Part shown: piece after piece, positions 1 to 64,000 of the stretch
Layout: every line of letters begins with the position of its first letter
Position numbering within the stretch: the first letter of the stretch is position 1
Assembly (NCBI GenBank): GCA_963971405.1
Contig: OZ020489.1
Coordinates: 620,001-684,000 of the forward strand
DNA from: Psococerastis gibbosa
Taxonomy: Eukaryota > Arthropoda > Insecta > Psocodea > Psocidae
Direction of reading: 5' to 3'
DNA: 64,000 nt
Made by a program: the position numbers and the translations under genes
Notes under the pieces: model-generated
Database searches by the model: none
What the model was told of the DNA's origin: nothing
What the model saw: the letters and a program-made list of their open reading frames with translations, nothing else

Positions 1-330
1 ATCGGCCACTTGCTCTTGCGTGTTCATCGGTGTAAATGTAGCTACAAAAAATTCATTCGACAAGAATACGAAAAATAGCTATATACTTATTTTATTTTTT
101 TTAAAGGTCTTGATATGACGCGGGTGTCTTAAATTGGCTTATTTTGGCTCATTGTATTGTAATTAACATTGAGCAATTGCTCCTGCGTGTTCGTCGGTTT
201 AAATGTTGCTAAAAATATTCATTCGACAAGAATAAAAAAAATAGCTATTTACTTATTTTATTTTTTTAAAGGTCTTGATATGATAAGGGTGTCTTAATTT
301 TGCTTATTTTGGCTCATTGTATTGAAATTA
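1..330 (+). repeat. Left-edge monomers of a further 3.5-kb unit
   Basis: Two monomers that match 1,499-1,830 and 5,000-5,330, including aaatattcattcg at about 209, 1,707 and 5,209. They belong to a unit that starts outside the window. A chimeric monomer near 331 joins a gaaattaacattgag 3' end to the cccctgcg class. Confidence 0.75.
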
Positions 331-535
331 ACATTGAGCAATTGCCCCTGCGTGTTCATCGGTGTAAATGTAGCTAAAAAAAATTCATTTGACAAGAATA
401 AGAAAAATAGCTATTTACTTATTTTATTTTTTTTAAAGGTGTTAAAAAGATATAGGTGTCTTAATTTTGCTTATTTAGGCTCATTGTATTGTACTTAACA
501 TCGGCCACTTGCTCCTGCGTGTTCATCGGTGTAAA

Positions 536-545
536 TGTAGCTACA
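536..545. repeat. 10-bp palindrome TGTAGCTACA (example)
   Basis: A perfect dyad in the 'aca' class of monomers. In the other classes it shrinks to TAGCTA or is lost (ttgcta). In the aligned monomer its centre lies about 32 bp after the GAGCAATTGCTC centre and about 37 bp before the AAATAGCTATTT centre. Confidence 0.8.
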
Positions 546-607
546 AAAAATTCATTCGACAAGAATACGAAAAATAGCTATATACTTATTTTATTTTTTT
601 TAAAGGT

Positions 608-624
608 CTTGATATGACACGGGT
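608..624 (+). promoter_or_regulatory. CENP-B-box-like 17-mer (weak match, example)
   Basis: The CENP-B box core is nTTCGnnnnAnnCGGGn. The segment cttgatatgacacgggt matches 7 of the 9 fixed positions: TT, the central A and all of CGGG, with GA in place of CG. It recurs in every gacacggg or gacgcggg monomer and overlaps the GACAC-GG-GTGTC dyad. Both mismatches fall in the essential TTCG half, so binding by a CENP-B-like protein is doubtful. This is a candidate only. Confidence 0.2.
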
Positions 625-627
625 GTC
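616..627. repeat. Inverted repeat GACAC-GG-GTGTC (example)
   Basis: Perfect 5-bp arms with a 2-bp spacer, in monomers whose 3' half reads cttgatatgacacgggtgtc. The dyad is weakened in the gacgcggg, gacaaggg and gataaggg classes and absent from the agatataggtgtc class. It therefore marks a subset of monomers at irregular multiples of the period. Confidence 0.8.
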
Positions 628-669
628 TTAAATTGGCTTATTTTGGCTCATTGTATTGTAATTAACATT

Positions 670-681
670 GAGCAATTGCTC
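670..681. repeat. 12-bp perfect palindrome GAGCAATTGCTC (example)
   Basis: The segment reads identically on both strands and lies just before the conserved gcgtgttc block. It occurs in a large share of monomers. Many others carry one-arm changes (gagcaattgttc, aagcaattgctc) that leave the CAATTG core intact, and the ggccacttgctc class loses the dyad. Protein binding or a cruciform role would be inference. Confidence 0.85.
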
Positions 682-683
682 CT

Positions 684-850
684 GCGTGTTCATCGGTTTA
701 AATGTAGCTAAAAAAAATTCATTCGACAAGAATAAGAAAAATAGCTATTTACTTATTTTATTTTTTTTAAAGGTTTTAGAAAGATATAGGTGTCTTAATT
801 TTGCTCGTTTTGGCTCAATGTGTTGTAATTAACATTGAGCAATTGTTCCT
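684..850 (+). repeat. Reference monomer (167 bp)
   Basis: A representative copy, phased arbitrarily to the conserved gcgtgttc block. In order it carries the block itself (684-696), a gtttaaatgtagct segment, an A8 run (710-717), attcgacaagaata (near 721-734), the AAATAGCTATTT palindrome (739-750), a T-rich tract ending in T8 (761-768), a 3' half with agaaagatataggtgtc, the ggctcaatgt segment, and the acattgagcaattg segment that leads into the next copy. G+C is 46 of 167 bases. Three middle-segment classes occur across the array: gtgtaaatgtagctaca with gaatacg, gtgtaaatgtagctaaa with gaataag, and gtttaaatgttgctaaa with gaataaa. Confidence 0.9.
731..757. repeat. Imperfect hairpin around AAATAGCTATTT (example)
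   Basis: The core AAATAGCTATTT (739-750) is a perfect 12-bp palindrome. It extends outward to aataag on the left and cttatt on the right, which are reverse complements, with one substitution and a one-base offset between core and outer arms. The 27-nt structure is among the best conserved parts of the monomer. The gaatacg/ctatatac class has a weakened right arm, and a few copies carry tagcca, taacta or tagata in the core. Confidence 0.85.
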
Positions 851-3800
851 GCGTGTTCATCAGTGTAAATGTAGCTAAAAAAAATTCATTCGACAAGAAT
901 AAGAAAAATAGCTATTTACTTATTTTATTTTTTTAAAGGTTTTAAAAAGATATAGGTGTCTTAATTTTGCTTATTTTGGCTCATTGTATTATACTTGACA
1001 TTAAGCAATTGCTCGTGCGTGTTCATCGGTTTAAATGTTGCTAAAAAAAATTCACTCGACAAGAATAAAAAAAATAGCTATTTACTTATTTTATTTTTTT
1101 TAAAGGTCTTGATATGATAAGGGTGTCTTAATTTTGCTTATTTTGGCTCATTGTATTGTACTATACATTGAACAATTGCTTCTGCGTGTTCATGGGTGTA
1201 AATGTAGCTAAAAAAAATTCATTCGACAAGAATAAGAAAAATAGCTATTTACTTATTTTTTTTTTTTAAAGGTCTTGATATGACAAGGGTGTCTTAATTT
1301 GGCTTATTATGGCTCAATGTATTGCACTTGACATTGAGCAATTGCTCCTGCGTGTTCATCGGTGTAAATGAAGCTAAAAAAAATTTATTCGACAAGAATA
1401 AGAAAAATAGCTATTTACTTATTTTATTTTTTTTAAAGGTCTTAAAAAGATATAGGTGTCTTAATTTTGCTTATTTAGGCTCACTGTATTGTGCTTAACA
1501 TCGGCCACTTGCTCTTGCGTGTTCATCGGTGTAAATGTAGCTACAAAAAATTCATTCGACAAGAATACGAAAAATAGCTATATACTTATTTTATTTTTTT
1601 TATAGGTCTTGATATGACGCGGGTGTCTTAAATTGGCTTATTTTGGCTCATTGTATTGTAATTAACATTGAGCAATTGCTCCTGCGTGTTCGTCGGTTTA
1701 AATGTTGCTAAAAATATTCATTCGACAAGAATAAAAAAAATAGCTATTTACTTATTATATTTTTTTAAAGGTCTTGATATGATAAGGGTGTCTTAATTTT
1801 GCTTATTTTGGCTCATTGTATTGAAATTAACATTGAGCAATTGCTCTTGCGTGTTCATCGGTGTAAATGTAGCTACAAAAAATTCATTCGACAAGAATAC
1901 GAAAAATAGCTATTTACTTATTTTATTTTTTTTAAAGGTCTTGATATGACACGGGTGTCTTAATTTGGCTTGTTTTGGCTCAATGTATTGTACTCAACAT
2001 TGAGCAATTGTTTGTGCGTGTTCATCGGTGTAAATGTAGCTAAAAAAAATTCATTCGACAAGAATAAGAAAAATAGCTATTTACTTATTTTATTTTTTTT
2101 AAAGGTCTTGATATGATAAGGGTGTCTTAATTTAGCTTATTTTGGCTCACTGTATTGTACTTAACATTGAGCTATTGCTCCTGCGTGTTCATCGGTGTAA
2201 ATGTAGCTGAAAAAAATTCATTCGACAAGAATAAGAAAAATAGCTATTTACTTATTTTATTTTTTTTAAAGGTTTTAAAAAGATATAGGTGTCTTAATTT
2301 TACTTATTTTGGCTCAATGTATTGTACTTAACATTGACCAATTGTATGTGCGTGTTCATCGGTGTAAATGTAGCTAAAAAAAATTCATTCGACAAGAATA
2401 AGAAAAATAGCTATTTACTTATTTTATTTTTCAAAAGGTCTTGATATGACGAGGGTGTCTTAATTTTGCTTACTTTGGCTCACTGTATTGTATTTAACAT
2501 TGAGCAATTGCTCCTGCGTGTTCATCGGTGTAAATGTAGCTAAAAAAAATTCATTCGACAAGAATACGAAAAATAGCTATATACTTATTTTATTTTTTTT
2601 TAAGGTCTTGATATGACACGGGTGTCTTAATTTGGCTTATTTTGGCTCATTGTATTAAAATTAACATTAAGCAATTGTTCCTGCGTGTTCATCGGTGTAA
2701 ATGTAGCTAAAAAAAATTCATTCGACAAGAATAAGAAAAATAGCTATTTACTCATTTTATTTTTTTAAAGGTTTTAAAAAGATAAGGGTGTCTAAATTTT
2801 GCTTTTTTTGGCTCAATGTATTGCACTTAACATTTAGCAATTGTTCCTGCTTGTTCATCGGTGTAAATGTAGCTAAAAAAAATTCATTCGACAAGAATAA
2901 GAAAAATAGCTATTTACTTATTTTATTTTTTTTAAGGGTCTTAAAAAGATATAGGTGTCTTAATTTTGCTTATTTAGGCTCACTGTATTGTACTTAACAT
3001 TGGACACTTGCTCCTGCGTGTTCATCGGTGTAAGTGTAGCTACAAAAAATTCATTCGACAAGAATACGAAAAATAGCTATATACTTATTTTTTTTTTTTT
3101 TAAAGGTCTTGATATGACACGGGTGTCTTAATTTTGCTTATTTTGGCTCATTGTATTGTACTTAACATTGAGCAATTGCTCCTGCGTGTTCATCGGTGTA
3201 AATGTAGCTAAAAAAAATTCATTCGACAAGAATTAGAAAATTAGCTATTTACTTATTTTATTTTCTTAAAGGTTTTAAAAAGATATAGGTGTCTTAATTT
3301 TGCTTTTTTGGCTCAATGTATTGTACTTAACATTGAACAATTGCTCCTGCGTGTTCATCGGGGTAAATGTAGCTAAAAACAATTCATACGACAAGAATTA
3401 GAAAAATAGCTATTTACTTATTTTATTTTTTTTAAAGGTTTTTAAAAGATATAGGTGTCTTAATTTTGCTTATTTTGGCTCAATGTATTGTACTTAACAT
3501 TGAGCAATTGTTTGTGCGTGTTCATCGGTGTAAATGTAGCTAAAAAAAATTCATTCGACTAGAATAAGAAAAATAGCTATTTACTTATTTTATTTTTTTT
3601 AAAGGTCTTAAAAAGATATAGGTGTCTTAATTTTGCTTATTTAGGCTCACTGTATTGTACTTGACATTGAGCAATTGCTCCTGCGTGTTCATCGGTTTAA
3701 ATGTTGCTAAAAAAAATTCATTCGACAAGAATAAAAAAAATAGCTATTTACTTATTTTATTTTTTTTAAAGGTCTTGATATGACACGGGTGTCTTAATTT

Positions 3801-6800
3801 GGCTTATTATGGCTCATTGTAATGTAATTAACATTGAGCAATTGCTCCTGCGTGTTCATCGGTGTAAATGTAGCTAAAAAAAATTCATTCGACAAGAATT
3901 AGAAAAATAGCTATTTACTTATTTTATTTTTTTAAAGGTTTTAAAAAGATATAGGTGTCTTAATTTTGCTTTTTTTGGCTCAATGTATTGCACTTGACAT
4001 TGAGCAATTGCCCCTGCGTGTTCATCGGTGTAAATGTAGCTAAAAAAAATTCATTTGACAAGAATAAGAAAAATAGCTATTTACTTATTTTATTTTTTTT
4101 AAAGGTGTTAAAAAGATATAGGTGTCTTAATTTTGCTTATTTAGGCTCATTGTATTGTACTTAACATCGGCCACTTGCTCCTGCGTGTTCATCGGTGTAA
4201 ATGTAGCTACAAAAAATTCATTCGACAAGAATACGAAAAATAGCTATATACTTATTTTATTTTTTTTAAAGGTCTTGATATGACACGGGTGTCTTAAATT
4301 GGCTTATTTTGGCTCATTGTATTGTAATTAACATTGAGCAATTGCTCCTGCGTGTTCATCGGTTTAAATGTAGCTAAAAAAAATTCATTCGACAAGAATA
4401 AGAAAAATAGCTATTTACTTATTTTATTTTTTTAAAGGTTTTAAAAAGATATAGGTGTCTTAATTTTGCTTATTTTGGCTCATTGTATTATACTTGACAT
4501 TAAGCAATTGCTCGTGCGTGTTCATCGGTTTAAATGTTGCTAAAAAAAATTCACTCGACAAGAATAAAAAAAATAGCTATTTACTTATTTTATTTTTTTT
4601 AAAGGTCTTGATATGATAAGGGTGTCTTAATTTTGCTTATTTTGGCTCATTGTATTGTACTATACATTGAACAATTGCTTCTGCGTGTTCATGGGTGTAA
4701 ATGTAGCTAAAAAAAATTCATTCGACAAGAATAAGAAAAATAGCTATTTACTTATTTTTTTTTTTTAAAGGTCTTGATATGACAAGGGTGTCTTAATTTG
4801 GCTTATTATGGCTCAATGTATTGCACTTGACATTGAGCAATTGCTCCTGCGTGTTCATCGGTGTAAATGAAGCTAAAAAAAATTTATTCGACAAGAATAA
4901 GAAAAATAGCTATTTACTTATTTTATTTTTTTTAAAGGTCTTAAAAAGATATAGGTGTCTTAATTTTGCTTATTTAGGCTCACTGTATTGTGCTCAACAT
5001 CGGCCACTTGCTCTTGCGTGTTCATCGGTGTAAATGTAGCTACAAAAAATTCATTCGACAAGAATACGAAAAATAGCTATATACTTATTTTATTTTTTTT
5101 AAAGGTCTTGATATGACGCGGGTGTCTTAAATTGGCTTATTTTGGCTCATTGTATTGTAATTAACATTGAGCAATTGCTCCTGCGTGTTCGTCGGTTTAA
5201 ATGTTGCTAAAAATATTCATTCGACAAGAATAAAAAAAATAGCTATTTACTTATTTTATTTTTTTAAAGGTCTTGATATGATAAGGGTGTCTTAATTTTG
5301 CTTATTTTGGCTCATTGTATTGAAATTAAAATTGAGCAATTGCTCTTGCGTGTTCATCGGTGTAAATGTAGCTACAAAAAATTCATTCGACAAGAATACG
5401 AAAAATAGCTATTTACTTATTTTATTTTTTTTAAAGGTCTTGATATGACACGGGTGTCTTAATTTGGCTTGTTTTGGCTCAATGTATTGTAATTAACATT
5501 GAGCAATTGTTCCTGCGTGTTCATCAGTGTAAATGTAGCTAAAAAAAATTCATTCGACAAGAATAAGAAAAATAGCTATTTACTTATTTTATTTTTTTTA
5601 AAGGTTTTAGAAAGATATAGGTGTCTTAATTTTGCTTATTTTGGCTCAAAGTATTGTACTTAACATTGAGCAATTGTTCCTGCGTGTTCATCGGTGTAAA
5701 TGTAGCTAAAAAAAATTCATTCGACAAGAATAAGAAAAATAGCTATTTACTTATTTTATTTTTTTTAAAGGTTTTAGAAAGATATAGGTGTCTTAATTTT
5801 GCTTATTTTGGCTCATTGTATTGTACTTGACATTAAGCAATTGCTTCTGCGTGTTGATCGGTTTAAATGTTGCTAAAAAAAATTCATTCGACAAGAATAA
5901 AAAAAATAGCTATTTACTTATTTTATTTTTTTAAAGGTCTTAAAAAGATATAGGTGTCTTAATTTTGCTTATTTAGGCTCACTGTATTGTGCTTAACATT
6001 GGCCACTTGCTCCTGCGTGTTCATCGGTGTAAGTGAAGCTACAAAAAATTCATTCGACAAGAATAAGAAAAATAGCTATATACTTATTTTATTTTTTTTA
6101 AAGGTCTTGATATGACACGGGTGTCTTAAATTGGCTTATTTTGGCTCATTGTATTGTACTTAACATTGGCCACTTGCTCCTGCGTGTTCATCGGTGTAAA
6201 TGTAGCTACAAAAAATTCATTCGACAAGAATACGAAAAATAGCCATTTACTTATTTTATTTTTTTTAAAGGTCTTAAAAAGATATAGGTGTCTTAATTTT
6301 GCTTATTTAGGCTCATTGTATTGTACTAAACATTGGCCACTTGCTCCTGCGTGTTCATCGGCTTAAATGTTGCTAAAAAAAATTCATTCGACAAGAATAA
6401 AAAAAATAGCTATTTACTTATTTTATTTTTTTAAAGGTCTTGATATGATAAGGGTGTCTTAATTTTGCTTATTTTGGCTCATTGTATTGAAATTAACATT
6501 GAGCAATTGCTATTGCGTGTTCATCGGAGTAAATGTAGCTACAAAAAATTCATTCGACAAGAATAAGAAAAATAGCTATTTACTTTTTTTTTATTTTTTT
6601 TAAAGGTCTTAAAAAGATATAGGTGTCTTAATTTTGCTTATTTAGGCTCATTGTATTGTACTTGACATTGAGAAATTGCTCCTGCGTGTTCATCGGTTTA
6701 AATGTTGCTAAAAAAAATTCATTCGACAAGAATAAAAAAAATAGCTATTTACTTATTTTATTTTTTTTAAAGGTCTTGATATGACACGGGTGTCTTAATT

Positions 6801-7031
6801 TGGCTTATTATGGCTCATTGTATTGTAATTAACATTGAGCAATTGCTCCTGCGTGTTCATCGGTGTAAATGTAGCTAAAAAAAATTCATTCGACAAGAAT
6901 TAGAAAAATAGCTATTTACTTATTTTATTTTTTTAAAGGTTTTAAAAAGATATAGGTGTCTTAATTTTGCTTTTTTTGGCTCAATGTATTGCACTTGACA
7001 TTGAGCAATTGCCCCTGCGTGTTCATCGGTG

Positions 7032-10000
7032 TAAATGTAGCTAAAAAAAATTCATTTGACAAGAATAAGAAAAATAGCTATTTACTTATTTTATTTTTTT
7101 TAAAGGTGTTAAAAAGATATAGGTGTCTTAATTTTGCTTATTTAGGCTCATTGTATTGTACTTAACATCGGCCACTTGCTCCTGCGTGTTCATCGGTGTA
7201 AATGTAGCTACAAAAAATTCATTCGACAAGAATACGAAAAATAGCTATATACTTATTTTATTTTTTTTAAAGGTCTTGATATGACACGGGTGTCTTAAAT
7301 TGGCTTATTTTGGCTCATTGTATTGTAATTAACATTGAGCAATTGCTCCTGCGTGTTCATCGGTTTAAATGTTGCTAAAAAAAATTCATTCGAAAAGAAT
7401 AAAAAAAATAGCTATTTACTTATTTTATTTTTTTAAAGGTCTTGATATGATAAGGGTGTCTTAATTTTGCTTATTTTGGCTCATTGTATTGAAATTAACC
7501 TTGAGCAATTGCTATTGCGTGTTCATCGGTGTAAATGTAGCTACAAAAAATTCATTCGACAAGAATAAGAAAAATAGCTATTTACTTATTTTATTTTTTT
7601 TAAAGGTTTAAGAAAGATATAGGTGTCTTAATTTTGCTTATTTTGGCTCAATGTATTGTACTTAACATTGAGCAATTGTTCCTGCGTGTTCATCGGTGTA
7701 AATGTAGCTAAAAAAAATTCATTCGACAAGAATAAGAAAAATAGCTATTTACTTATTTTATTTTTTTTAAAGGTTTTAGAAAGATATAGGTGTCTTAATT
7801 TTGCTCGTTTTGGCTCAATGTATTGTAATTAACATTGAGCAATTGTTCCTGCGTGTTCATCAGTGTAAATGTAGCTAAAAAAAATTCATTCGACAAGAAT
7901 AAGAAAAATAGCTATTTACTTATTTTATTTTTTTAAAGGTTTTAAAAAGATATAGGTGTCTTAATTTTGCTTATTTTGGCTCATTGTATTATTCTTGACA
8001 TTAAGCAATTGCTCGTGCGTGTTCATCGGTTTAAATGTTGCTAAAAAAAATTCACTCGACAAGAATAAAAAAAATAGCTATTTACTTATTTTATTTTTTT
8101 TAAAGGTCTTGATATGATAAGGGTGTCTTAATTTTGCTTATTTTGGCTCACTGTATTGTACTAAACATTGAACAATTGCTTCTGCGTGTTCATGGGTGTA
8201 AATGTAGCTAAAAAAAATTCATTCGACAAGAATACGAAAAATAGCTATATACTTATTTTATTTTTTTTAAAGGTTTTAGAAAGATATAGGTGTCTTAATT
8301 TTGCTTATTTTGGCTCAATGTATTGTACTTAACATTGACCAATTGTATGTGCGTGTTCATCGGTGTAAATGTAGCTAAAAAAAATTCATTCGACAAGAAT
8401 ACGAAAAATAGCTATATACTTATTTTTTTTTTTTTTTAAGGTCTTGATATGACACGGGTGTCTTAATTTGGCTTATTTTGGCTCATTGTATTAAAATTAA
8501 CATTAAGCAATTGTTCCTGCGTGTTCATCGGTGTAAATGTAGCTAAAAAAAATTCATTCGACAAGAATAAGAAAAATAGCTATTTACTCATTTTATTTTT
8601 TTAAAGGTTTTAAAAAGATAAAGGTGTCTAAATTTTGCTTTTTTTGGCTCAATGTATTGCACTTAACATTTAGCAATTGTTCCTGCTTGTTCATCGGTGT
8701 AAATGTAGCTAAAAAAAATTCATTCGACAAGAATAAGAAAAATATCTATTTACTTATTTTATTTTTTTTAAGGGTCTTAAAAAGATATAGGTGTCTTAAT
8801 TTTGCTTATTTAGGCTCACTGTATTGTACTTAACATTGGACACTTGCTCCTGCGTGTTCATCGGTGTAAGTGTAGCTACAAAAAATTCATTCGACAAGAA
8901 TACGAAAAATAGCTATATACTTATTTTATTTTTCAAAAGGTCTTGATATGACAAGGGTGTCTTAGTTTTGCTTATTTAGGCTCACTGTATTGTACTTAAT
9001 ATTGGCCACTTGCTCCTGCGTGTTCATCGGTGTAAATGTAGCTACTAAAAATTCAATCGATAAGAATACGAAAAATAGCTATTTACTTATTTTATTTTTT
9101 TTAAAGGTCTTGATATGACACGGGTGCCTTAATTTGGCTTGTTTTGGCTCAATGTATTGTAATTAACATTGAACAATTGTTCCTGCGTGTTCATCAGTGT
9201 AAATGTAGCTAAAAAAATTCATTCGACAAGAATAAAAAAAATAGCTATTTACTTATTTTATTTTTTTTAAAGGTCTTGATATGACACGGGTGTCTTAATT
9301 TGGCTTATTATGGCTCAATGTATTGCAATTAACATTGAGCAATTGCTCCTGCGTGTTCATCGGTGTAAATGTAGCTAAAAAAAATTCATTCGACAAGAAT
9401 TAGAAAAATAGCTATTTACTTATTTAATTTTTTTAAAGGTTTTAAAAAGATATAGGTGTCTTTATTTTGCTTTTTTGGCTCAATGTATTGCACTTGACAT
9501 TGAGCAATTGCTCCTGCGTGTTCATCGGTGTAAATGTAGCTAAAAAAAATTCATTCGACAAGAATAAGAAAAATAGCTATTTACTTATTTTATTTTTTTT
9601 AAAGGTCTTAAAAAGATATAGGTGTCTTAATTTTGCTTATTTAGGCTCACTGTATTGTACTCAACATTGGCCACTTGTAACTGTAAATTGTACTGTACTG
9701 TACACTTGTACTGTAAATGTAGCTACAAAAAATTCATTCGACAAGAATACGAAAAATAGCTATATACTTATTTTATTTTTTTTAAAGGTTTTGATATGAT
9801 ATAGGTGTCTTAATTTTGCTTATTTTGGCTCACTGTATTGTACTTAACATTGAGCTATTGCTCCTGCGTGTTCATCGGTGTAAGTGAAGCTACAAAAAAT
9901 TCATTCGACAAGAATACGAAAAATAGCTATATACTTATTTTATTTTTTTTAAAGGTTTTGATATGATATAGGTGTCTTAATTTTGCTTATTTTGGCTCAA

Positions 10001-10670
10001 TGTATTGTACTCAACATTGAGCAATTGTTTGTGCGTGTTCATCGGTGTAAATGTAGCTAAAAAAATTCATTCGACAAGAATAAGAAAAATAGCTATTTAC
10101 TTATTTTATTTTTTTTAAAGGTCTTGATATGATAAGGGTGTCTTAATTTTGCTTATTTTGGCTCACTGTATTGTACTTAACATTGAGCTATTGCTCCTGC
10201 GTGTTCATCGGTGTAAATGTAGCTAAAAAAAATTCATTCGACAAGAATAAGAAAAATAGCTATTTACTTATTTTATTTTTTTTAAAGGTTTTAAAAAGAT
10301 ATAGGTGTCTTAATTTTACTTATTTTGGCTCAATGTATTGTACTCAACATTGACCAATTGTATGTGCGTGTTCATCGGTGTAAATGTAGCTAAAAAAAAT
10401 TCATTCGACAAGAATAAGAAAAATAGCTATTTACTTATTTTATTTTTCAAAAGGTCTTGATATGACGAGGGTGTCTTAATTTTGCTTACTTTGGCTCACT
10501 GTATTGTATTTAACATTGAGCAATTGCTCCTGCGTGTTCATCGGTGTAAATGTAGCTAAAAAAAATTCATTCGACAAGAATACGAAAAATAGCTATATAC
10601 TTATTTTATTTTTTTTTTAAGGTCTTGATATGACACGGGTGTCTTAATTTGGCTTATTTTGGCTCATTGT
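7032..10670 (+). repeat. 4,016-bp (24-monomer) tandem duplication, copy 1
   Basis: Homology with copy 2 holds at an offset of 4,015-4,016 bp from the ttcatttgac monomer to just before 'attgtaatta' near 10,671. It includes the rare tatctattt variant, the gataaagg variant and the 36-nt odd segment at 9678. A few differences are visible: one A-run length near 9,211, ttaattttttt near 9,424, and cctg versus ccag near 9,349/13,365. The region between the copies (about 10,671-11,047) re-uses about 2.2 monomers from near 7,826-8,200, consistent with a second unequal exchange. Confidence 0.85.
9678..9713 (+). repeat. 36-nt atypical segment replacing 20 nt of monomer
   Basis: Between cacttg and taaatgtagc a normal monomer has 20 nt (ctcctgcgtgttcatcggtg). 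Here there are 36 nt, rich in tgtac/actgt steps. The context shows two near copies of cacttgta(a)ctgtaaat flanking a tgtactgtactgta run, so this looks like a local templated micro-duplication and not foreign DNA. It removes the block that is otherwise the best conserved part of the monomer. Confidence 0.85.
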
Positions 10671-11047
10671 ATTGTAATTAACATTGAGCAATTGTTCCTG
10701 CGTGTTCATCAGTGTAAATGTAGCTAAAAAAAATTCATTCGACAAGAATAAGAAAAATAGCTATTTACTTATTTTATTTTTTTAAAGGTTTTAAAAAGAT
10801 ATAGGTGTCTTAATTTTGCTTATTTTGGCTCATTGTATTATTCTTGACATTAAGCAATTGCTCGTGCGTGTTCATCGGTTTAAATGTTGCTAAAAAAAAT
10901 TCACTCGACAAGAATAAAAAAAATAGCTATTTACTTATTTTATTTTTTTTAAAGGTCTTGATATGATAAGGGTGTCTTAATTTTGCTTATTTTGGCTCAC
11001 TGTATTGTACTAAACATTGAACAATTGCTTCTGCGTGTTCATGGGTG

Positions 11048-48260: not shown

Positions 48261-48665
48261 AGTGAAGCTACAAAAAATTCATTCGACAAGAATACGAAAA
48301 ATAGCTATATACTTATTTTATTTTTTTTAAAGGTCTTGATATGACACGGGTGTCTTAAATTGGCTTATTTTGGCTCATTGTATTGTACTTAACATTGGCC
48401 ACTTGCTCCTGCGTGTTCATCGGTGTAAATGTAGCTAAAAAAAATTCATTCGACAAGAATAAGAAAAATAGCTATTTACTTATTTTATTTTTTTTAAAGG
48501 TCTTTAAAAGATATAGGTGTCTTAATTTTGCTTATTTAGGCTTATTGTATTGTACTTGACATTGAGCAATTGCTCCAGCGTGTTCATCGGTTTAAATGTT
48601 GCTAAAAAAAATTCAATCGACAAGAATAAAAAAAATAGCTATTTACTTATTTTATTTTTTTTAAA
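48261..48665 (+). repeat. Linker monomers between composite repeats
   Basis: Ordinary satellite monomers. The stretch with aggcttattg, ctccagcg and ttcaatcgac matches 37,600-37,827, so the composite repeat was joined to an older unit boundary. Confidence 0.6.
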
Positions 48666-53760: not shown

Positions 53761-53795
53761 ATGTAGCTACAAAAAATTCAATCGACAAGAATACG

Positions 53796-56700
53796 AAAAA
53801 TAGCTATTTACTTATTTTATTTTTTTTAAAGGTCTTGATATGACACGGGTTTGGCTTGTTTTGGCTCAATGTATTGTAATTAACATTGAGCAATTGTTCC
53901 TGCGTGTTCATCAGTGTAAATGTAGCTAAAAAAAATTCATTCGACAAGAATAAGAAAAATAGCTATTTACTTATTTTATTTTTTTAAAGGTTTTAAAAAG
54001 ATATAGGTGTCTTAATTTTGCTTATTTTGGCTCATTGTATTGTACTTGACATTGAGCAATTGCTCCTGCGTGTTCATCGGTTTTAAATGTTGCTAAAAAA
54101 AATTCATTCGACAAGAATAAAAAAAAATAGCTATTTACTTATTTTTTTTTTTTTAAAGGTCTTGATATGACACGGGTGTCTCAATTTGGCTTATTTTGGC
54201 TCATTGTATTGTAATTAACATTGAGCAATTGCTCCTGCGTGTTCATCGGTGTAAATGTAGCTAAGAAAAATTCATTTGACAAGAATAAGAAAAATAGCTA
54301 TTTACTTATTTTATTTTTTTTAAAGGTGTTAAAAAGATATAGGTGTCTTAATTTTGCTTATTTAGGCTCACTGTATTGTACTTAACATCGGCCACTTGCT
54401 CCAGCGTGTTCATTGGTGTAAATGTAGCTACAAAAAATTCATTCGACAAGAATACGAAAAATAGCTATATACTTATTTTATTTTTTTTAAAGGTCTTGAT
54501 ATGACACGGGTGTCTAAAATTGGCTTATTTTGGCTCATTGTATTGTAATTAACATTGAGCAATTGCTCCTGCGTGTTCATCGGTTTAAATGTTGCTAAAA
54601 AAAATTCATTCGAAAAGAATAAAAAAAATAGCTATTTACTTATTTTATTTTTTTAAAGGTCTTGATATGATAAGGGTGTCTTAATTTTGCTTATTTTGGC
54701 TCATTGTATTGAAATTAACATTGAGCAATTGCTATTGCGTGTTCATCGGTGTAAATGTAGCTACAAAAAATTCATTCGACAAGAATAAGAAAAATAGCTA
54801 TTTACTTATTTTATTTTTTTAAAAGGTTTTAGAAAGATATAGGTGTCATAATTTTGCTTATTTTGGCTCAATGTATTGTACTTAACATTGAGCAATTGTT
54901 CCTGCGTGTTCATCGGTGTAAATGTAGCTAAAAAAAATTCATTCGACAAGAATAAGAAAAATAACTATTTACTTATTTTATTTTTTTTAAAGGTTTTAGA
55001 AAGATATAGGTGTCTTAATTTTGCTCGTTTTGGCTCAATGTATTGTAATTAACATTGAGCGATTGTTCCTGCGTGTTCATCAGTGTAAATGTAGCTAAAA
55101 AAAATTCATTCGACAAGAATAAGAAAAATAGCTATTTACTTATTTTATTTTTTTAAAGGTTTTAAAAAGATATAAGTGCCTTAATTTTGCTTATTTTGGC
55201 TCATTGTATTGTACTTGACATTAAGCAATTGCTCCTGCGTGTTCATCGGTTTAAATGTTGCTAAAAAAATTCACTCGACAAGAATAAAAAAAATAGCTAT
55301 TTACTTATTTTATTTTTTTTAAAGGTCTTGATATGATAAGGGTGTCTTAATTTTGCTTATTTTGGCTCATTGTATTGTACTTGACATTGAGCAATTGCTC
55401 CTGCGTGTTCATCGGTTTTAAATGTTGCTAAAAAAAATTCATTCGACAAGAATAAAAAAAAATAGCTATTTACTTATTTTATTTTTTTTAAAGGTCTTGA
55501 TATGACACGGGTGTCTCAATTTGGCTTATTTTGGCTCATTGTAATGTAATTAACATTGAGCAATTGCTCCTGCGTGTTCATCGGTGTAAATGTAGCTAAA
55601 AAAAATTCATTCGACAAGAATTAGAAAAATAGCTATTTACTTATTTTATTTTTTTAAAGGTTTTAAAAGATATAGGTGTCTTAATTTTGCTTTTTTTGGC
55701 TCAGTGTATTGCACTTGACATTGAGCAATTGCTCCTGCGTGTTCATCGGTGTAAATGTAGCTAAGAAAAATTCATTTGACAAGAATAAGAAAAATAGCTA
55801 TTTACTTATTTTATTTTTTTTAAAGGTGTTAAAAAGATATAGGTGTCTTAATTTTGCTTATTTAGGCTCACAGTATTGTACTTAACATCGGCCACTTGCT
55901 CCTGCGTGTTCATTGGTGTAAATGTAGCTACAAAAAATTCATTCGACAAGAATACGAAAAATAGCTATATACTTATTTTATTTTTTTTAAAGGTCTTGAT
56001 ATGACACGGGTGTCTTAAATTGGCTTATTTTGGCTCATTGTATTGTAATTAACATTGAGCAATTGCTCCTGCGTGTTCATCGGTTTAAATGTTGCTAAAA
56101 AAAATTCATTCGAAAAGAATAAAAAAAATAGCTATTTACTTATTTTATTTTTTTAAAGGTCTTGATATGATAAGGGTGTCTTAATTTTGCTTATTTTGGC
56201 TCATTGTATTGAAATTAACATTGAGCAATTGCTATTGCGTGTTCATCGGTGTAAATGTAGCTACAAAAAATTCATTCGACAAGAATAAGAAAAATAGCTA
56301 TTTACTTATTTTATTTTTTTAAAAGGTTTTAGAAAGATATAGGTGTCTTAATTTTGCTTATTTTGGCTCAATGTATTGTACTTAACATTGAGCAATTGTT
56401 CCTGCGTGTTCATCGGTGTAAATGTAGCTAAAAAAAATTCATTCGACAAGAATAAGAAAAATAGCTATTTACTTATTTTATTTTTTTTAAAGGTTTTAGA
56501 AAGATATAGGTGTCTTAATTTTGCTCGTTTTGGCTCAATGTATTGTAGTTAACATTGAGCAATTGTTCCTGCGTGTTCATCAGTGTAAATGTAGCTAAAA
56601 CAAATTCATTCGACAAGAATAAGAAAAATAGCTATTTACTTATTTTATTTTTTTTAAAGGTCTTAAAAAGATATAGGTGTCTTAATTTTGCTTATTTAGG

Positions 56701-58786
56701 CTCACTGTATTGTACTTAACATTGGCCACTTGCTCCTGCGTGTTCATCGGTGTAAGTGTAGCTACCAAAAATTCATTCGACAAGAATACGAAAAATAGCT
56801 ATTTACTTATTTTATTTTTTTAAAGGTTTTAAAAAGATATAAGTGTCTTAATTTTGCTTATTTTGGCTCATTGTATTGTACTTGACATTAAGCAATTGCT
56901 CCTGCGTGTTCATCGGTTTAAATGTTGCTAAAAAAATTCACTCGACAAGAATAAAAAAAATAGCTATTTACTTATTTTATTTTTTTTAAAGGTCTTGATA
57001 TGATAAGGGTGTCTTAATTTTGCTTATTTTGGCTCATTGTATTGTAGTCAACATTGAACAATTGCTTCTGCGTGTTCATGGGTGTAAATGTAGCTAAAAA
57101 AAATTCATTCGACAAGAATAAGAAAAATAGCTATTTACTTATTTTATTTTTTTTAAAGGTCTTAAAAAGATATAGGTGTCTTAAGTTTGCTTATTTAGGC
57201 TCACTGTATTGTACATAACATCGGCCACTTGCTCTTGCGTGTTCATCGGTGTAAATGTAGCTACAAAAAATTCATTCGACAAGAATACGAAAAATAGCTA
57301 TATACTTATTTTATTTTTTTTAAAGGTCTTGATATGACGCGGGTGTCTTAAATTGGCTTATTTTGGCTCATTGTATTGTAATTAACATTGAGCAATTGCT
57401 CCTGCGTGTTCGTCGGTTTAAATGTTGCTAAAAAAAATTCATTCGACAAGAATAAAAAAAATAGCTATTTACTTATTTTATTTTTTTAAAGGTCTTGATA
57501 TGATAAGGGTGTCTTAATTTTGCTTATTTTGGCTCATTGTATTAAAATTAACATTGAGCAATTGCTCCTGCGTGTTCATCGGTGTAAATGTAGCTACAAA
57601 AAATTCATTCGACAAGAATAAGAAAAATAGCTATTTACTTATTTTATTTTTTTAAGGGTCTTGATATGATAAGGGTGTCTTAATTTTGCTTATTTTGGTT
57701 CATTGTATTGTACTTAACATTAAGCAATTGCTCCTGCGTGTTCATCGGTGTAAATGTAGCTAAAAAAAATTCATTCGACAAGAATAAGAAAAATAGATAT
57801 TTACTTATTTTATTTTTTTTAAAGGTCTTTAAAAGATATTGGTGTCTTAGTTTTGCTTATTTAGGCTCACTGTATTGTACTCAACATTGGCCACTTGCTC
57901 GTGCGTGTTCATCGGTGTAAATGTAGCTACAAAAAATTCAATCGACAAGAATAAGAAAAATAGCTATTTACTTATTTTATTTTTTTTAAAGGTCTTGATA
58001 TGACACGGGTGTCTTAAATAGGCTTATTTTGGCTCATTGTATTGTAATTAACATTGAGCAATTGCTCCTGCGTGTTCATCGGTTTAAATGTTGCTAAAAA
58101 AAATTCATTCGAAAAGAATAAAAAAAAAGCTATTTACTTATTTTATTTTTTTAAAGGTCTTGATATGATAAGGGTGTCTTAATTTTGCTTATTTTGGCTC
58201 ATTGTATTGAAATTAACATTGAGCAATTGCTATTGCGTGTTCATCGGTGTAAATGTAGCTACAAAAAATTCATTCGACAAGAATAAGAAAAATAGCTATT
58301 TACTTATTTTATTTTTTTAAAAGGTTTTAGAAAGATATAGGTGTCTTAATTTTGCTTATTTTGGCTCAATGTATTGTACTTAACATTGAGCAATTGTTCC
58401 TGCGTGTTCATCGGTGTAAACGTAGCTAAAAAAAATTCATTCGACAAGAATAAGAAAAATAGCTATTTACTTATTTTATTTTTTTTAAAGGTTTTAGAAA
58501 GATATAGGTGTCTTAATTTTGCTCGTTTTGGCTCAATGTATTGTAATTAACATTGAGCAATTGTTCCTGCGTGTTCATCAGTGTAAATGTAGCTAAAAAA
58601 AATTCATTCGACAAGAATAAGAAAAATAGCTATTTACTTATTTTATTTTTTTAAAGGTTTAAAAAAGATATGAGTGTCTTAATTTTGCTTATTTTGGCTC
58701 ATTGTATTGTACTTGACATTAAGCAATTGCTCCTGCGTGTTCATCGGTTTAAATGTTGCTAAAAAAATTCACTCGACAAGAATAAA
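53796..58786 (+). repeat. 4,991-bp (30-monomer) tandem duplication, copy 1
   Basis: The offset to copy 2 is 4,991 bp from end to end with no monomer gained or lost. Only a few differences are seen by eye over 5 kb: ccag/cctg near 54,402, gtgcc/gtgtc near 55,178, aaagg/aacgg near 60,148, cat/cgt near 61,570, one aaa/att run change near 63,426 and one near 58,661. That would be about 99.9% identity. Internally, a set of markers (aagaaaaattcatttgac at 54,263 and 55,763; gaaaagaat at 54,613 and 56,113) repeats at 1,500 bp (9 monomers), so this unit was itself built by duplication. Confidence 0.92.
53842..53860 (+). repeat. 8-bp deletion marker gacacgggtttggcttg (also 58833)
   Basis: The usual gacacgggtgtcttaatttggc has lost gtcttaat, shortening the monomer and removing the right arm of the GACAC-GG-GTGTC dyad. 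It occurs only at 53842 and 58833, exactly 4,991 bp apart. Confidence 0.85.
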
Positions 58787-61700
58787 AAAAATAGCTATTT
58801 ACTTATTTTATTTTTTTTAAAGGTCTTGATATGACACGGGTTTGGCTTGTTTTGGCTCAATGTATTGTAATTAACATTGAGCAATTGTTCCTGCGTGTTC
58901 ATCAGTGTAAATGTAGCTAAAAAAAATTCATTCGACAAGAATAAGAAAAATAGCTATTTACTTATTTTATTTTTTTAAAGGTTTTAAAAAGATATAGGTG
59001 TCTTAATTTTGCTTATTTTGGCTCATTGTATTGTACTTGACATTGAGCAATTGCTCCTGCGTGTTCATCGGTTTTAAATGTTGCTAAAAAAAATTCATTC
59101 GACAAGAATAAAAAAAAATAGCTATTTACTTATTTTTTTTTTTTTAAAGGTCTTGATATGACACGGGTGTCTCAATTTGGCTTATTTTGGCTCATTGTAT
59201 TGTAATTAACATTGAGCAATTGCTCCTGCGTGTTCATCGGTGTAAATGTAGCTAAGAAAAATTCATTTGACAAGAATAAGAAAAATAGCTATTTACTTAT
59301 TTTATTTTTTTTAAAGGTGTTAAAAAGATATAGGTGTCTTAATTTTGCTTATTTAGGCTCACTGTATTGTACTTAACATCGGCCACTTGCTCCTGCGTGT
59401 TCATTGGTGTAAATGTAGCTACAAAAAATTCATTCGACAAGAATACGAAAAATAGCTATATACTTATTTTATTTTTTTTAAAGGTCTTGATATGACACGG
59501 GTGTCTAAAATTGGCTTATTTTGGCTCATTGTATTGTAATTAACATTGAGCAATTGCTCCTGCGTGTTCATCGGTTTAAATGTTGCTAAAAAAAATTCAT
59601 TCGAAAAGAATAAAAAAAATAGCTATTTACTTATTTTATTTTTTTAAAGGTCTTGATATGATAAGGGTGTCTTAATTTTGCTTATTTTGGCTCATTGTAT
59701 TGAAATTAACATTGAGCAATTGCTATTGCGTGTTCATCGGTGTAAATGTAGCTACAAAAAATTCATTCGACAAGAATAAGAAAAATAGCTATTTACTTAT
59801 TTTATTTTTTTAAAAGGTTTTAGAAAGATATAGGTGTCATAATTTTGCTTATTTTGGCTCAATGTATTGTACTTAACATTGAGCAATTGTTCCTGCGTGT
59901 TCATCGGTGTAAATGTAGCTAAAAAAAATTCATTCGACAAGAATAAGAAAAATAACTATTTACTTATTTTATTTTTTTTAAAGGTTTTAGAAAGATATAG
60001 GTGTCTTAATTTTGCTCGTTTTGGCTCAATGTATTGTAATTAACATTGAGCGATTGTTCCTGCGTGTTCATCAGTGTAAATGTAGCTAAAAAAAATTCAT
60101 TCGACAAGAATAAGAAAAATAGCTATTTACTTATTTTATTTTTTTAACGGTTTTAAAAAGATATAAGTGTCTTAATTTTGCTTATTTTGGCTCATTGTAT
60201 TGTACTTGACATTAAGCAATTGCTCCTGCGTGTTCATCGGTTTAAATGTTGCTAAAAAAATTCACTCGACAAGAATAAAAAAAATAGCTATTTACTTATT
60301 TTATTTTTTTTAAAGGTCTTGATATGATAAGGGTGTCTTAATTTTGCTTATTTTGGCTCATTGTATTGTACTTGACATTGAGCAATTGCTCCTGCGTGTT
60401 CATCGGTTTTAAATGTTGCTAAAAAAAATTCATTCGACAAGAATAAAAAAAAATAGCTATTTACTTATTTTATTTTTTTTAAAGGTCTTGATATGACACG
60501 GGTGTCTCAATTTGGCTTATTTTGGCTCATTGTAATGTAATTAACATTGAGCAATTGCTCCTGCGTGTTCATCGGTGTAAATGTAGCTAAAAAAAATTCA
60601 TTCGACAAGAATTAGAAAAATAGCTATTTACTTATTTTATTTTTTTAAAGGTTTTAAAAGATATAGGTGTCTTAATTTTGCTTTTTTTGGCTCAGTGTAT
60701 TGCACTTGACATTGAGCAATTGCTCCTGCGTGTTCATCGGTGTAAATGTAGCTAAGAAAAATTCATTTGACAAGAATAAGAAAAATAGCTATTTACTTAT
60801 TTTATTTTTTTTAAAGGTGTTAAAAAGATATAGGTGTCTTAATTTTGCTTATTTAGGCTCACAGTATTGTACTTAACATCGGCCACTTGCTCCTGCGTGT
60901 TCATTGGTGTAAATGTAGCTACAAAAAATTCATTCGACAAGAATACGAAAAATAGCTATATACTTATTTTATTTTTTTTAAAGGTCTTGATATGACACGG
61001 GTGTCTTAAATTGGCTTATTTTGGCTCATTGTATTGTAATTAACATTGAGCAATTGCTCCTGCGTGTTCATCGGTTTAAATGTTGCTAAAAAAAATTCAT
61101 TCGAAAAGAATAAAAAAAATAGCTATTTACTTATTTTATTTTTTTAAAGGTCTTGATATGATAAGGGTGTCTTAATTTTGCTTATTTTGGCTCATTGTAT
61201 TGAAATTAACATTGAGCAATTGCTATTGCGTGTTCATCGGTGTAAATGTAGCTACAAAAAATTCATTCGACAAGAATAAGAAAAATAGCTATTTACTTAT
61301 TTTATTTTTTTAAAAGGTTTTAGAAAGATATAGGTGTCTTAATTTTGCTTATTTTGGCTCAATGTATTGTACTTAACATTGAGCAATTGTTCCTGCGTGT
61401 TCATCGGTGTAAATGTAGCTAAAAAAAATTCATTCGACAAGAATAAGAAAAATAGCTATTTACTTATTTTATTTTTTTTAAAGGTTTTAGAAAGATATAG
61501 GTGTCTTAATTTTGCTCGTTTTGGCTCAATGTATTGTAGTTAACATTGAGCAATTGTTCCTGCGTGTTCGTCAGTGTAAATGTAGCTAAAACAAATTCAT
61601 TCGACAAGAATAAGAAAAATAGCTATTTACTTATTTTATTTTTTTTAAAGGTCTTAAAAAGATATAGGTGTCTTAATTTTGCTTATTTAGGCTCACTGTA

Positions 61701-63777
61701 TTGTACTTAACATTGGCCACTTGCTCCTGCGTGTTCATCGGTGTAAGTGTAGCTACCAAAAATTCATTCGACAAGAATACGAAAAATAGCTATTTACTTA
61801 TTTTATTTTTTTAAAGGTTTTAAAAAGATATAAGTGTCTTAATTTTGCTTATTTTGGCTCATTGTATTGTACTTGACATTAAGCAATTGCTCCTGCGTGT
61901 TCATCGGTTTAAATGTTGCTAAAAAAATTCACTCGACAAGAATAAAAAAAATAGCTATTTACTTATTTTATTTTTTTTAAAGGTCTTGATATGATAAGGG
62001 TGTCTTAATTTTGCTTATTTTGGCTCATTGTATTGTAGTCAACATTGAACAATTGCTTCTGCGTGTTCATGGGTGTAAATGTAGCTAAAAAAAATTCATT
62101 CGACAAGAATAAGAAAAATAGCTATTTACTTATTTTATTTTTTTTAAAGGTCTTAAAAAGATATAGGTGTCTTAAGTTTGCTTATTTAGGCTCACTGTAT
62201 TGTACATAACATCGGCCACTTGCTCTTGCGTGTTCATCGGTGTAAATGTAGCTACAAAAAATTCATTCGACAAGAATACGAAAAATAGCTATATACTTAT
62301 TTTATTTTTTTTAAAGGTCTTGATATGACGCGGGTGTCTTAAATTGGCTTATTTTGGCTCATTGTATTGTAATTAACATTGAGCAATTGCTCCTGCGTGT
62401 TCGTCGGTTTAAATGTTGCTAAAAAAAATTCATTCGACAAGAATAAAAAAAATAGCTATTTACTTATTTTATTTTTTTAAAGGTCTTGATATGATAAGGG
62501 TGTCTTAATTTTGCTTATTTTGGCTCATTGTATTAAAATTAACATTGAGCAATTGCTCCTGCGTGTTCATCGGTGTAAATGTAGCTACAAAAAATTCATT
62601 CGACAAGAATAAGAAAAATAGCTATTTACTTATTTTATTTTTTTAAGGGTCTTGATATGATAAGGGTGTCTTAATTTTGCTTATTTTGGCTCATTGTATT
62701 GTACTTAACATTAAGCAATTGCTCCTGCGTGTTCATCGGTGTAAATGTAGCTAAAAAAAATTCATTCGACAAGAATAAGAAAAATAGATATTTACTTATT
62801 TTATTTTTTTTAAAGGTCTTTAAAAGATATTGGTGTCTTAGTTTTGCTTATTTAGGCTCACTGTATTGTACTCAACATTGGCCACTTGCTCGTGCGTGTT
62901 CATCGGTGTAAATGTAGCTACAAAAAATTCAATCGACAAGAATAAGAAAAATAGCTATTTACTTATTTTATTTTTTTTAAAGGTCTTGATATGACACGGG
63001 TGTCTTAAATAGGCTTATTTTGGCTCATTGTATTGTAATTAACATTGAGCAATTGCTCCTGCGTGTTCATCGGTTTAAATGTTGCTAAAAAAAATTCATT
63101 CGAAAAGAATAAAAAAAAAGCTATTTACTTATTTTATTTTTTTAAAGGTCTTGATATGATAAGGGTGTCTTAATTTTGCTTATTTTGGCTCATTGTATTG
63201 AAATTAACATTGAGCAATTGCTATTGCGTGTTCATCGGTGTAAATGTAGCTACAAAAAATTCATTCGACAAGAATAAGAAAAATAGCTATTTACTTATTT
63301 TATTTTTTTAAAAGGTTTTAGAAAGATATAGGTGTCTTAATTTTGCTTATTTTGGCTCAATGTATTGTACTTAACATTGAGCAATTGTTCCTGCGTGTTC
63401 ATCGGTGTAAACGTAGCTAAAAAAATTTCATTCGACAAGAATAAGAAAAATAGCTATTTACTTATTTTATTTTTTTTAAAGGTTTTAGAAAGATATAGGT
63501 GTCTTAATTTTGCTCGTTTTGGCTCAATGTATTGTAATTAACATTGAGCAATTGTTCCTGCGTGTTCATCAGTGTAAATGTAGCTAAAAAAAATTCATTC
63601 GACAAGAATAAGAAAAATAGCTATTTACTTATTTTATTTTTTTAAAGGTTTTAAAAAGATATGAGTGTCTTAATTTTGCTTATTTTGGCTCATTGTATTG
63701 TACTTGACATTAAGCAATTGCTCCTGCGTGTTCATCGGTTTAAATGTTGCTAAAAAAATTCACTCGACAAGAATAAA
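58787..63777 (+). repeat. 4,991-bp tandem duplication, copy 2
   Basis: Directly abuts copy 1 and matches it throughout. The boundary is visible because the 58.7 kb monomer joins aataaaaaaaatagc to the gacacgggtttggc monomer, whereas at the matching point in copy 1 (53.8 kb) the join follows gaatacgaaaaatagc. Confidence 0.92.
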
Positions 63778-64000
63778 AAAAATAGCTATTTACTTATTTT
63801 ATTTTTTTTATAGGTCTTGATATGATAAGGGTGTCTTAATTTTGCTTATTTTGGCTCATTGTATTGTACTCAACATTGAACAATTGCTACTGCGTGTTCA
63901 TGGGTGTAAATGTAGCTAAAAAAATTCATTCGACAAGAATAAGAAAAATAGCTATTTACTTATTTTATTTTTTTTAAAGGTCTTAAAAAGATATAGGTGT
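63778..64000 (+). repeat. Partial next unit at the window edge
   Basis: The array continues in phase past the second 4,991-bp copy. The monomers here (gataagggtgtc, then caacattgaacaattgc with catgggtg at 63899) resemble 56.99-57.18 kb and 62.0-62.2 kb. The satellite therefore extends beyond the window. The same holds at position 1, which begins inside a monomer. Confidence 0.8.

What the first reader, a model, noticed from the sequence alone, without database searches (positions are those of the whole stretch)
1..64000. Irregular nested higher-order repeats, all multiples of the monomer
The private marker catgggtg lies at 1191, 4690, 8191, 11040, 12207, 19719, 23550, 27051, 28385, 30721, 31554, 34064, 37073, 47250, 52750, 57077, 62068 and 63899. 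The gaps correspond to about 21, 21, 17, 7, 45, 23, 21, 8, 14, 5, 15, 18, 61, 33, 26, 30 and 11 monomers. No single fixed unit rules the array. Units of 13-37 monomers are duplicated inside one another, unlike regular human alpha-satellite higher-order repeats.
Basis: seen in the sequence. Interest (0 to 1): 0.7.

Follow-up and report, generated by a model that had tools for sequence, protein, structure and literature searches.

The report
Barkfly chromosome-end satellite with nested duplications
This is part of a very large block of a 167-base tandem repeat near one end of a barkfly chromosome, built by irregular duplications inside duplications; the pattern is real and of a known general kind, and is mainly interesting because this insect group is described as lacking localised centromeres.

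Summary
The window is one satellite: about 167 bp per unit, 384 copies, one strand. All 18 catgggtg sites are exact. A higher-order-repeat (HOR) call puts 371 of 383 monomers in duplicated blocks, yet the commonest nearest period, 15 monomers, covers only 50 of 383. All six predicted off-diagonals exist. Scrambled assembly is unlikely: the longest exact repeat is 1.4 kb, against a mean read of about 9.4 kb.

The window is chromosome 6, 620-684 kb, in a block from base 1 to 1.20-1.25 Mb. The satellite is about 4% of the genome, in blocks at ends of chromosomes 2, 3, 5, 6, 8 and X, inside chromosome 4, and over half of the 'Y'. Psocids are reported holocentric. Best reading: subtelomeric heterochromatic satellite shaped by in-register local duplication and deletion, not a human-type centromere. 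Against it: one weak, unread H3-like match might be a CenH3, so absence of CenH3 is not shown. The marker is not private: 222 copies, on at least five chromosomes.

The parts
1..64000 (+). Uninterrupted array of a 167-bp satellite, 384 anchors, three main monomer subfamilies
53776..63759 (+). Tandem pair of a 30-monomer block (53776-58768 and 58767-63759), 99.8% identical, 5.0 kb shift
7050..14747 (+). 22-monomer block and its copy 24 monomers (4.0 kb) away (7050-10731, 11066-14747), 99.8%
31081..36599 (+). 18-monomer run at a shift of 15 monomers (2.5 kb): 31081-34089 and 33591-36599, 99.7%
4383..27076 (+). 23-monomer block copied 113 monomers (18.9 kb) away: 4383-8216 and 23243-27076, 99.8%
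550..21576 (+). 15-monomer block copied 111 monomers (18.5 kb) away: 550-3048 and 19078-21576, 99.6%
14081..23409 (+). Nested set: 14081-16247 repeated at 16913-19078 (17 monomers) and, as part of a longer block, at 20577-23409 (39 monomers); 16913-19078 to 20577-22742 is 22 monomers
37606..51944 (+). Nested set with shifts of 15, 37, 50 and 65 monomers (37606-40107, 40274-42607, 43108-45776, 48444-50944, 49277-51944)
1191..63906 (+). 18 marker sites CATGGGTG, one monomer lineage (17 of 18 in one group at 2% single linkage)

Best explanation
The window is part of a subtelomeric, presumably heterochromatic, satellite block of Psococerastis gibbosa, an insect of an order described as holocentric. 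I saw no sign of a coding task. The block is kept and reshaped by homology-guided exchange between misaligned copies (unequal sister exchange or break-induced copying). Each event duplicates or deletes a block of a few to a few tens of monomers nearby and in register with the monomer. Later events cut across earlier blocks, so repeats of every size lie inside one another and no period becomes fixed. Shown: block structure, register, locality, genomic position. Inferred: the exchange mechanism, the heterochromatin state, and the lack of a centromere role.
For: Register kept at all 383 spacings. 44 copied blocks in a greedy parse against 281 after one shuffle. 365 of 383 monomers have a partner at 98.5% or better within the window, but only 69 of 383 in the 1,117 monomers of the first 200 kb of the same scaffold, and 58-68 in stretches of 382 of these: homogenisation is local. 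Block divergence rises with distance in the first 200 kb (rho 0.54, 340 blocks). Random tandem duplication and deletion with blocks averaging 10-20 monomers gives similar HOR coverage (0.70-0.98; observed 0.97) and top-period share (0.08-0.24; observed 0.13). Position: chromosome 3 has telomere at 1-200 and 8 kb, satellite at 20, 50, 150 and 300 kb; chromosome 8 has satellite at 34.90-35.25 Mb and ends in telomere at 35.30 Mb. Terminal C-bands are the usual pattern of holokinetic chromosomes (PMC8313506, passages).
Against: In the window itself divergence does not rise clearly with distance (rho 0.33, p=0.11, 25 blocks). The simulation was run once per setting, its arrays were less alike on average (0.87 against 0.904), and its non-tandem mode fits partly too, so tandem and nearby copying are not told apart. 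The satellite is not confined to ends: chromosome 4 has it inside, the 'Y' over half its length. No chromatin or cytology data for this repeat. A weak unread H3-like match leaves room for a CenH3.
Confidence: 0.72

Rival explanations
1. The blocks are true centromeres: the species, or most of its chromosomes, is in fact monocentric and nearly telocentric, and this is an alpha-satellite-like centromeric repeat with irregular HORs.
For: Nucleosome-sized monomer, megabase arrays, HORs; mostly one main block per chromosome where one was seen (chromosomes 2, 3, 4, 5, 6, 8, X, Y). One weak H3-like match (C19:8257078-8257233, 55% identity over H3 residues 69-123, 134-residue open frame without stop, E 1.9e-5) could be a CenH3 and was not read.
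Against: Psocids, with this species among those studied, are described as holokinetic without primary constrictions (PMC6910881). Chromosome 1 has no exact core 17-mer in the ordered listing and none in 6 samples; chromosome 7 none in 11 samples, though missing ends could hide blocks. None of the 18 histone-like stretches read looked like a CenH3. No CENP-B box with 0 or 1 mismatch.
Confidence: 0.14
2. The nested pattern is an assembly product: HiFi contigs were joined wrongly among near-identical copies.
For: Block junctions are in register, as mis-joins would also be; scaffold ends on chromosomes 6 and X show short inverted stretches; 427 contigs and 358 gaps in the assembly (PMC12559846).
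Against: No N in the window; longest exact repeat 1,409 bp against a mean read of about 9.4 kb; large copies differ by 0.07-0.80%; reported quality value 60.4. In the first 200 kb exact repeats reach 7,507 bp, so the margin is thinner there.
Confidence: 0.04
3. Blocks spread by rolling-circle copies (extrachromosomal circles) put back into the array rather than by unequal exchange.
For: Some blocks are copied far away, e.g. 23 monomers at 18.9 kb and 14 at 38.4 kb; related copies lie on many chromosomes.
Against: Circles put back repeatedly should give runs of one tandem unit, i.e. a dominant local period, which is not seen. Tandem exchange followed by deletion also leaves separated copies: in the tandem simulations with means of 10-20 monomers, 27 of 119 blocks of 8 or more were strictly tandem; observed 4 of 25.
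Confidence: 0.08

Closest known systems
Local HORs of the Arabidopsis CEN178 centromere satellite, as called by TRASH (PMC10199239, passages)
   Same: HORs called as pairs of duplicated monomer blocks without needing monomer classes or one period; monomer near 170-180 bp (recalled for CEN178).
   Different: CEN178 carries CenH3 chromatin of a monocentric plant (recalled); here the blocks are mostly terminal in an insect of a holocentric order.
Human alpha satellite HOR arrays (PMC10199239, passages)
   Same: About 170-bp monomers, megabase arrays, blocks of monomers copied as units.
   Different: Human arrays have a reported period per array for most chromosomes; here the top nearest period covers 50 of 383 monomers.
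Terminal satellite heterochromatin of holocentric bugs, e.g. Edessa (PMC13427858, abstract and outline)
   Same: Amplified satellites in terminal blocks of holocentric insect chromosomes, with Y accumulation.
   Different: HOR structure is not mentioned in the abstract that I saw; different order.
Maize CentC HORs at centromere 10 (PMC4806543, abstract and outline)
   Same: HORs made by adjacent duplication, attributed by the authors to repair of double-strand breaks.
   Different: Centromeric and mixed with retrotransposons; the window has no interruption.
Satellite-based holocentromeres of Chionographis (PMC10264360, passages)
   Same: Megabase satellite arrays on holocentric chromosomes.
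   Different: 7-11 CENH3-positive arrays per chromosome with 23- and 28-bp monomers; here mostly one main block per chromosome was seen, CenH3 state unknown.

Membership tests
Irregular (local) HOR satellite | Most monomers lie in duplicated blocks of 3 or more monomers with at most 5 differences per monomer | tested here: met
   371 of 383 monomers
Irregular (local) HOR satellite | No single dominant period | tested here: met
   33 distinct nearest periods, top share 50 of 383
Regular human-type alpha satellite HOR | One fixed HOR period over most of the array | tested here: not met
   best lag has 12% of pairs at 98.5% or better
Regular human-type alpha satellite HOR | CENP-B box (motif recalled) | tested here: not met
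   no match with 0 or 1 mismatch; 97 with 2 mismatches against 39 expected, mostly one monomer word
Centromeric satellite | Binds CenH3 or kinetochore proteins | not testable with these tools
   no chromatin data
Centromeric satellite | The genome encodes a CenH3 | tested here: inconclusive
   none among the 18 histone-like stretches read, but a weak H3-like match on chromosome 8 could not be read; CENP-C search empty, and so was the Ndc80 control
Centromeric satellite | One array on every chromosome | tested here: inconclusive
   not found on chromosome 1 (6 samples) or 7 (0 of 11 samples), whose ends are partly missing
Subtelomeric satellite | Lies next to telomere repeats | tested here: met
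   chromosome 3 left, chromosome 8 right, scaffold C4; on chromosomes 2, 5, 6 and X the scaffold starts inside the satellite, so there it is not seen
Subtelomeric satellite | Confined to chromosome ends | tested here: not met
   block inside chromosome 4 (5 of 5 samples, 19.0-21.0 Mb) and over half of the 'Y' (11 of 12 samples, 6.0-11.7 Mb)

The most novel reading that the evidence does not exclude
In this reportedly holocentric insect the main megabase satellite block of each chromosome, mostly at one end, is the preferred localised attachment or pairing site, at least in meiosis: a 'terminal centromere' (with or without CenH3) whose DNA has taken on centromere-like nested HORs. The order would then not be plainly holocentric.
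Probability: 0.08. Interest if true: 0.78.

Novelty: new member of a known kind. Interest (0 to 1): 0.36.

Why it matters
It shows in assembled sequence that centromere-style nested HORs build up in mostly terminal satellite blocks of an insect from a holocentric order. HOR structure alone is then a poor mark of a centromere, and simple local exchange seems enough to make it. It also offers chromosome markers for a group whose chromosomes are described as almost impossible to tell apart (PMC6910881), and poses a concrete test: do these blocks carry attachment or not?

Tried and rejected
Viral and prokaryote collections hold no exact match to a 28-base core, as expected for an insect satellite. 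I tested the centromere idea through histone-fold matches, a direct search with the species' own H3, CENP-C and Ndc80 as a control. The control failed, so I give the CENP-C result no weight. A rare-variant pattern meant to map the satellite evenly was itself amplified and its 100-row listing ended on scaffold C4; I mapped by sampled stretches instead. I looked for a preferred break point within the monomer but compared it with no null, so I draw nothing from it.
Full report
WHAT WAS CLAIMED AND WHETHER IT IS THERE. The window is one satellite from end to end. Tandem Repeats Finder gives period 167, 383.7 copies, over 10-64000. A conserved 18-base anchor occurs 384 times on the + strand with spacings of 159-183 bp and never on the minus strand. 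CATGGGTG occurs at exactly the 18 listed positions; shuffles give 0.34 on average. All 18 are at the same site of the monomer. At 2% single linkage 17 of the 18 marker monomers form one group; their mean identity is 0.983, against 0.904 for all monomer pairs in the window. The marker follows one lineage that was copied about.

HIGHER-ORDER STRUCTURE. I cut the array into 383 full monomers and compared every pair. Clustered together with 1,117 monomers from the first 200 kb of the same scaffold they fall into three large subfamilies (727, 418 and 338 of 1,500) at 9% distance, which follow each other with little order: entropy of the next type given the last is 1.44 bits in the window and 1.59 in shuffles. 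There are 185 collinear runs of 4 or more monomers at 96% or better, against 0-1 in five shuffles; runs seeded at 97.5% cover 373 of 383 monomers. The six predicted off-diagonals are present, and lags of 3.7, 6.5, 8.3, 10.8 and 18.9 kb are of the same order. With the block definition of TRASH (3 or more monomers, at most 5 differences; PMC10199239, passages), 371 of 383 monomers lie in a HOR. There are 33 distinct nearest periods, led by 15 monomers (50 of 383), 24 (35) and 30 (29). No period rules. Nesting shows as sums of lags (17+22=39; 15+50=65). A greedy parse needs 44 blocks, against 281 after one shuffle.

IS THE ASSEMBLY TO BLAME? The window has no N. Its longest exact repeat is 1,409 bp. 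The genome note reports 22.19 Gb in 2.36 million HiFi reads, about 9.4 kb each, and a quality value of 60.4 (PMC12559846, first of four parts read). The 25 block pairs of 8 or more monomers differ by 0.07-0.80%. A mis-join of identical copies is unlikely here. In the first 200 kb of the scaffold exact repeats reach 7,507 bp, so there the margin is thinner. I had no reads to map.

WHOSE GENOME, AND WHERE. The window is contig C14, 620001-684000, of a genome of 409,210,807 bases in 68 contigs with TTAGG telomere repeats. A literature search on two chromosome lengths found Psococerastis gibbosa, assembly iuPsoGibb1.1, 409.21 Mb. C14 is chromosome 6. The array starts at base 1 of that scaffold, the first 0.58 kb inverted. 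Beyond the window it was present in 9 of 9 samples from 690 to 950 kb, absent at 1.00 Mb, present at 1.10 and 1.20 Mb, and absent at 1.25, 1.30, 1.35, 1.50 and 2.00 Mb. The first 200 kb hold 1,125 anchors. The array there is broken near 95.2-106.7 kb and has five intervals of 312 bp. From 200 to 620 kb I hold only seven short loci, all satellite, and marker hits.

GENOME-WIDE SPREAD. The 17-mer core occurs 37,080 + 42,590 times. It is in 279 of 384 window monomers and 901 of 1,125 of the first 200 kb. If that holds elsewhere there are about 100,000-110,000 monomers, 16.6-18.3 Mb, 4.1-4.5% of the genome. Samples from X, 'Y' and chromosome 4 are more diverged from chromosome 6 (median best identity 89.5, 94.0 and 92.5%) than those from chromosomes 2, 3, 5 and 8 (95.7-98.4%), so this may be low. 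Samples and hits by chromosome: chromosome 2, satellite at base 1, 0.5, 0.75 and 1.0 Mb, none at 1.5, marker hits at 1.63-1.66, none at 1.8 and 2.0 Mb; chromosome 3, telomere at base 1 and 8 kb, satellite at 20, 50, 150 and 300 kb, marker hits to 608 kb, none at 700, 850 and 1,000 kb; chromosome 4, 5 of 5 samples from 19.0 to 21.0 Mb, none at 17.0, 18.0, 18.5, 21.5, 22.5, 1.0 Mb or in 4 samples at the right end; chromosome 5, satellite at base 1 and 50 kb, none at 150 kb, marker hits at 277-287 kb, none at 350, 400 and 500 kb; chromosome 8, satellite in 5 of 5 samples from 34.90 to 35.25 Mb, none at 35.285 Mb, telomere at the end, none in 5 samples elsewhere; X, satellite in 6 of 6 samples from base 1 to 150 kb, none at 200 and 300 kb; 'Y', 0 of 10 samples from 0.3 to 5.4 Mb and 11 of 12 from 6.0 to 11.7 Mb. 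Chromosome 1 has no exact core 17-mer, if the listing is ordered by contig as it looks, and none in 6 samples; chromosome 7 none in 11 samples. Unplaced scaffolds C5-C11, C17 and C18 begin in satellite; C4 begins in telomere repeats and has satellite at 20 and 600 kb; C16 has it at 317-338 kb; of 20 small scaffolds sampled one had a weak match. The marker 21-mer occurs 222 times.

ORIENTATION. Where the block is terminal, the satellite's + strand mostly runs inward from the end: chromosomes 2, 3, 5, 6 and scaffold C4 (left ends, plus), chromosome 8 (right end, minus): six of six. Exceptions: one reverse marker hit on chromosome 3, the first 0.58 kb of chromosome 6, and the X, minus in 2 samples (first 2.2 kb) and plus in 4 (10-150 kb). 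Six of six has a chance of about 3%, so it is only suggestive; exchange between chromosome ends would keep the orientation.

HOW IT MOST LIKELY WORKS. Register is kept at all 383 spacings. Homogenisation is local: 365 of 383 window monomers have a partner at 98.5% within the window, 69 of 383 in the 1,117 monomers of the first 200 kb, 58-68 in stretches of 382 of them. Nearer block copies are younger in the first 200 kb (rho 0.54, 340 blocks) but not clearly in the window (rho 0.33, p=0.11, 25 blocks). This is what homology-guided unequal exchange or break-induced copying over tens of kilobases gives. A small simulation (12 settings, one run each) of random duplication and deletion gives, in tandem mode with blocks averaging 10-20 monomers, HOR coverage 0.70-0.98 and top-period share 0.08-0.24 (observed 0.97 and 0.13); blocks of 3 give coverage 0.31-0.40. 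Copying to nearby places with blocks of 20 gives 0.83-0.89, so the two modes are not told apart, and the simulated arrays are less alike (0.87) than the real one (0.904). No selection is needed.

IS IT A CENTROMERE? Psocids are described as holokinetic, P. gibbosa among the species studied (PMC6910881, parts 1 and 2 of 3 read; PMC7392213, passages). CenH3 was not found in the holocentric insects examined by Drinnenberg and co-workers, lice included (PMC4359364, passages). Here a Pfam histone search gave 37 matches; I fetched 18 of them, and those that are H3-like read as H3, H3.3-like or broken relics; 19 were not read. A search with the species' own H3 gave 23 matches: four identical copies, several at 92-97%, relics, and a few weak ones. 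One, C19:8257078-8257233, is 55% identical over H3 residues 69-123 in a 134-residue open frame without stops (E 1.9e-5); another, C3:41065774-41065878, is 62% over 34 residues (E 0.003). I could not read them. Either could be a CenH3, another histone-fold gene or a relic. CENP-C was not found, but neither was Ndc80, which must exist, so that search is blind to such genes. No CENP-B box with 0 or 1 mismatch. A centromere role is unlikely on present evidence, but not excluded.

COMPARISON AND NOVELTY. HORs called as block pairs without one period are known from Arabidopsis CEN178, and terminal C-bands are the main pattern of holokinetic chromosomes (PMC8313506, passages; Edessa bugs, PMC13427858, abstract and outline). 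A search for the species name listed four papers; I opened two, in part, and what I read does not describe this satellite. Searches joining Psocoptera with satellite terms listed 6 papers and 15 of 1,550, none on it by title. It looks like an undescribed satellite, a new member of a known kind.

Noticed in passing
G000:C21 (the 12.03-Mb 'Y'); samples L093, L112-L131, L211: Cytology gives P. gibbosa males as 2n = 16 + X(0), confirmed in 4 males / 46 nuclei from the Altai (PMC6910881), yet the British male assembly names a Y (PMC12559846). About half of this 'Y' is the satellite (11 of 12 samples from 6.0 to 11.7 Mb). A B chromosome, a population difference or a true Y are all open.
   Followed up: partly
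G000:C14:95203-106700 (L018, L019): An insert in the array with a 1,273- and a 531-residue open frame on the minus strand; 579 residues of the first match reverse transcriptase (PF00078, E 6.2e-14): a retroelement inside the satellite, which the window itself lacks.
   Followed up: partly
G000:C14:1-580 and G000:C20:1-2200: The outermost bases of the chromosome 6 and X scaffolds are satellite in inverted orientation to what follows; end-of-contig artefact or real inversion.
   Followed up: no
G000:C19:8257078-8257233: Weak H3-like match (55% over 55 residues, 134-residue open frame, no stop), a possible CenH3 candidate in a reportedly holocentric insect; not read.
   Followed up: partly
G000:C14:11085363-11086704 and other places: 43 COX1 matches in the assembly, one nearly full-length in two pieces on chromosome 6 with TGA codons: nuclear copies of mitochondrial DNA.
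   Followed up: no
G000:C19, first 75 kb: Histone gene cluster with four identical H3 genes near the left end of chromosome 8.
   Followed up: no
G000:C1:53605816-53611016: Near the right telomere of chromosome 1 short TTAGG stretches are interspersed before the continuous array, as if other repeats lie among them.
   Followed up: no
G000:C14:107669, 124830, 133646, 136125 and 145437: Five spacings of exactly 312 bp instead of 167: an odd unit that was itself copied with its blocks.
   Followed up: no
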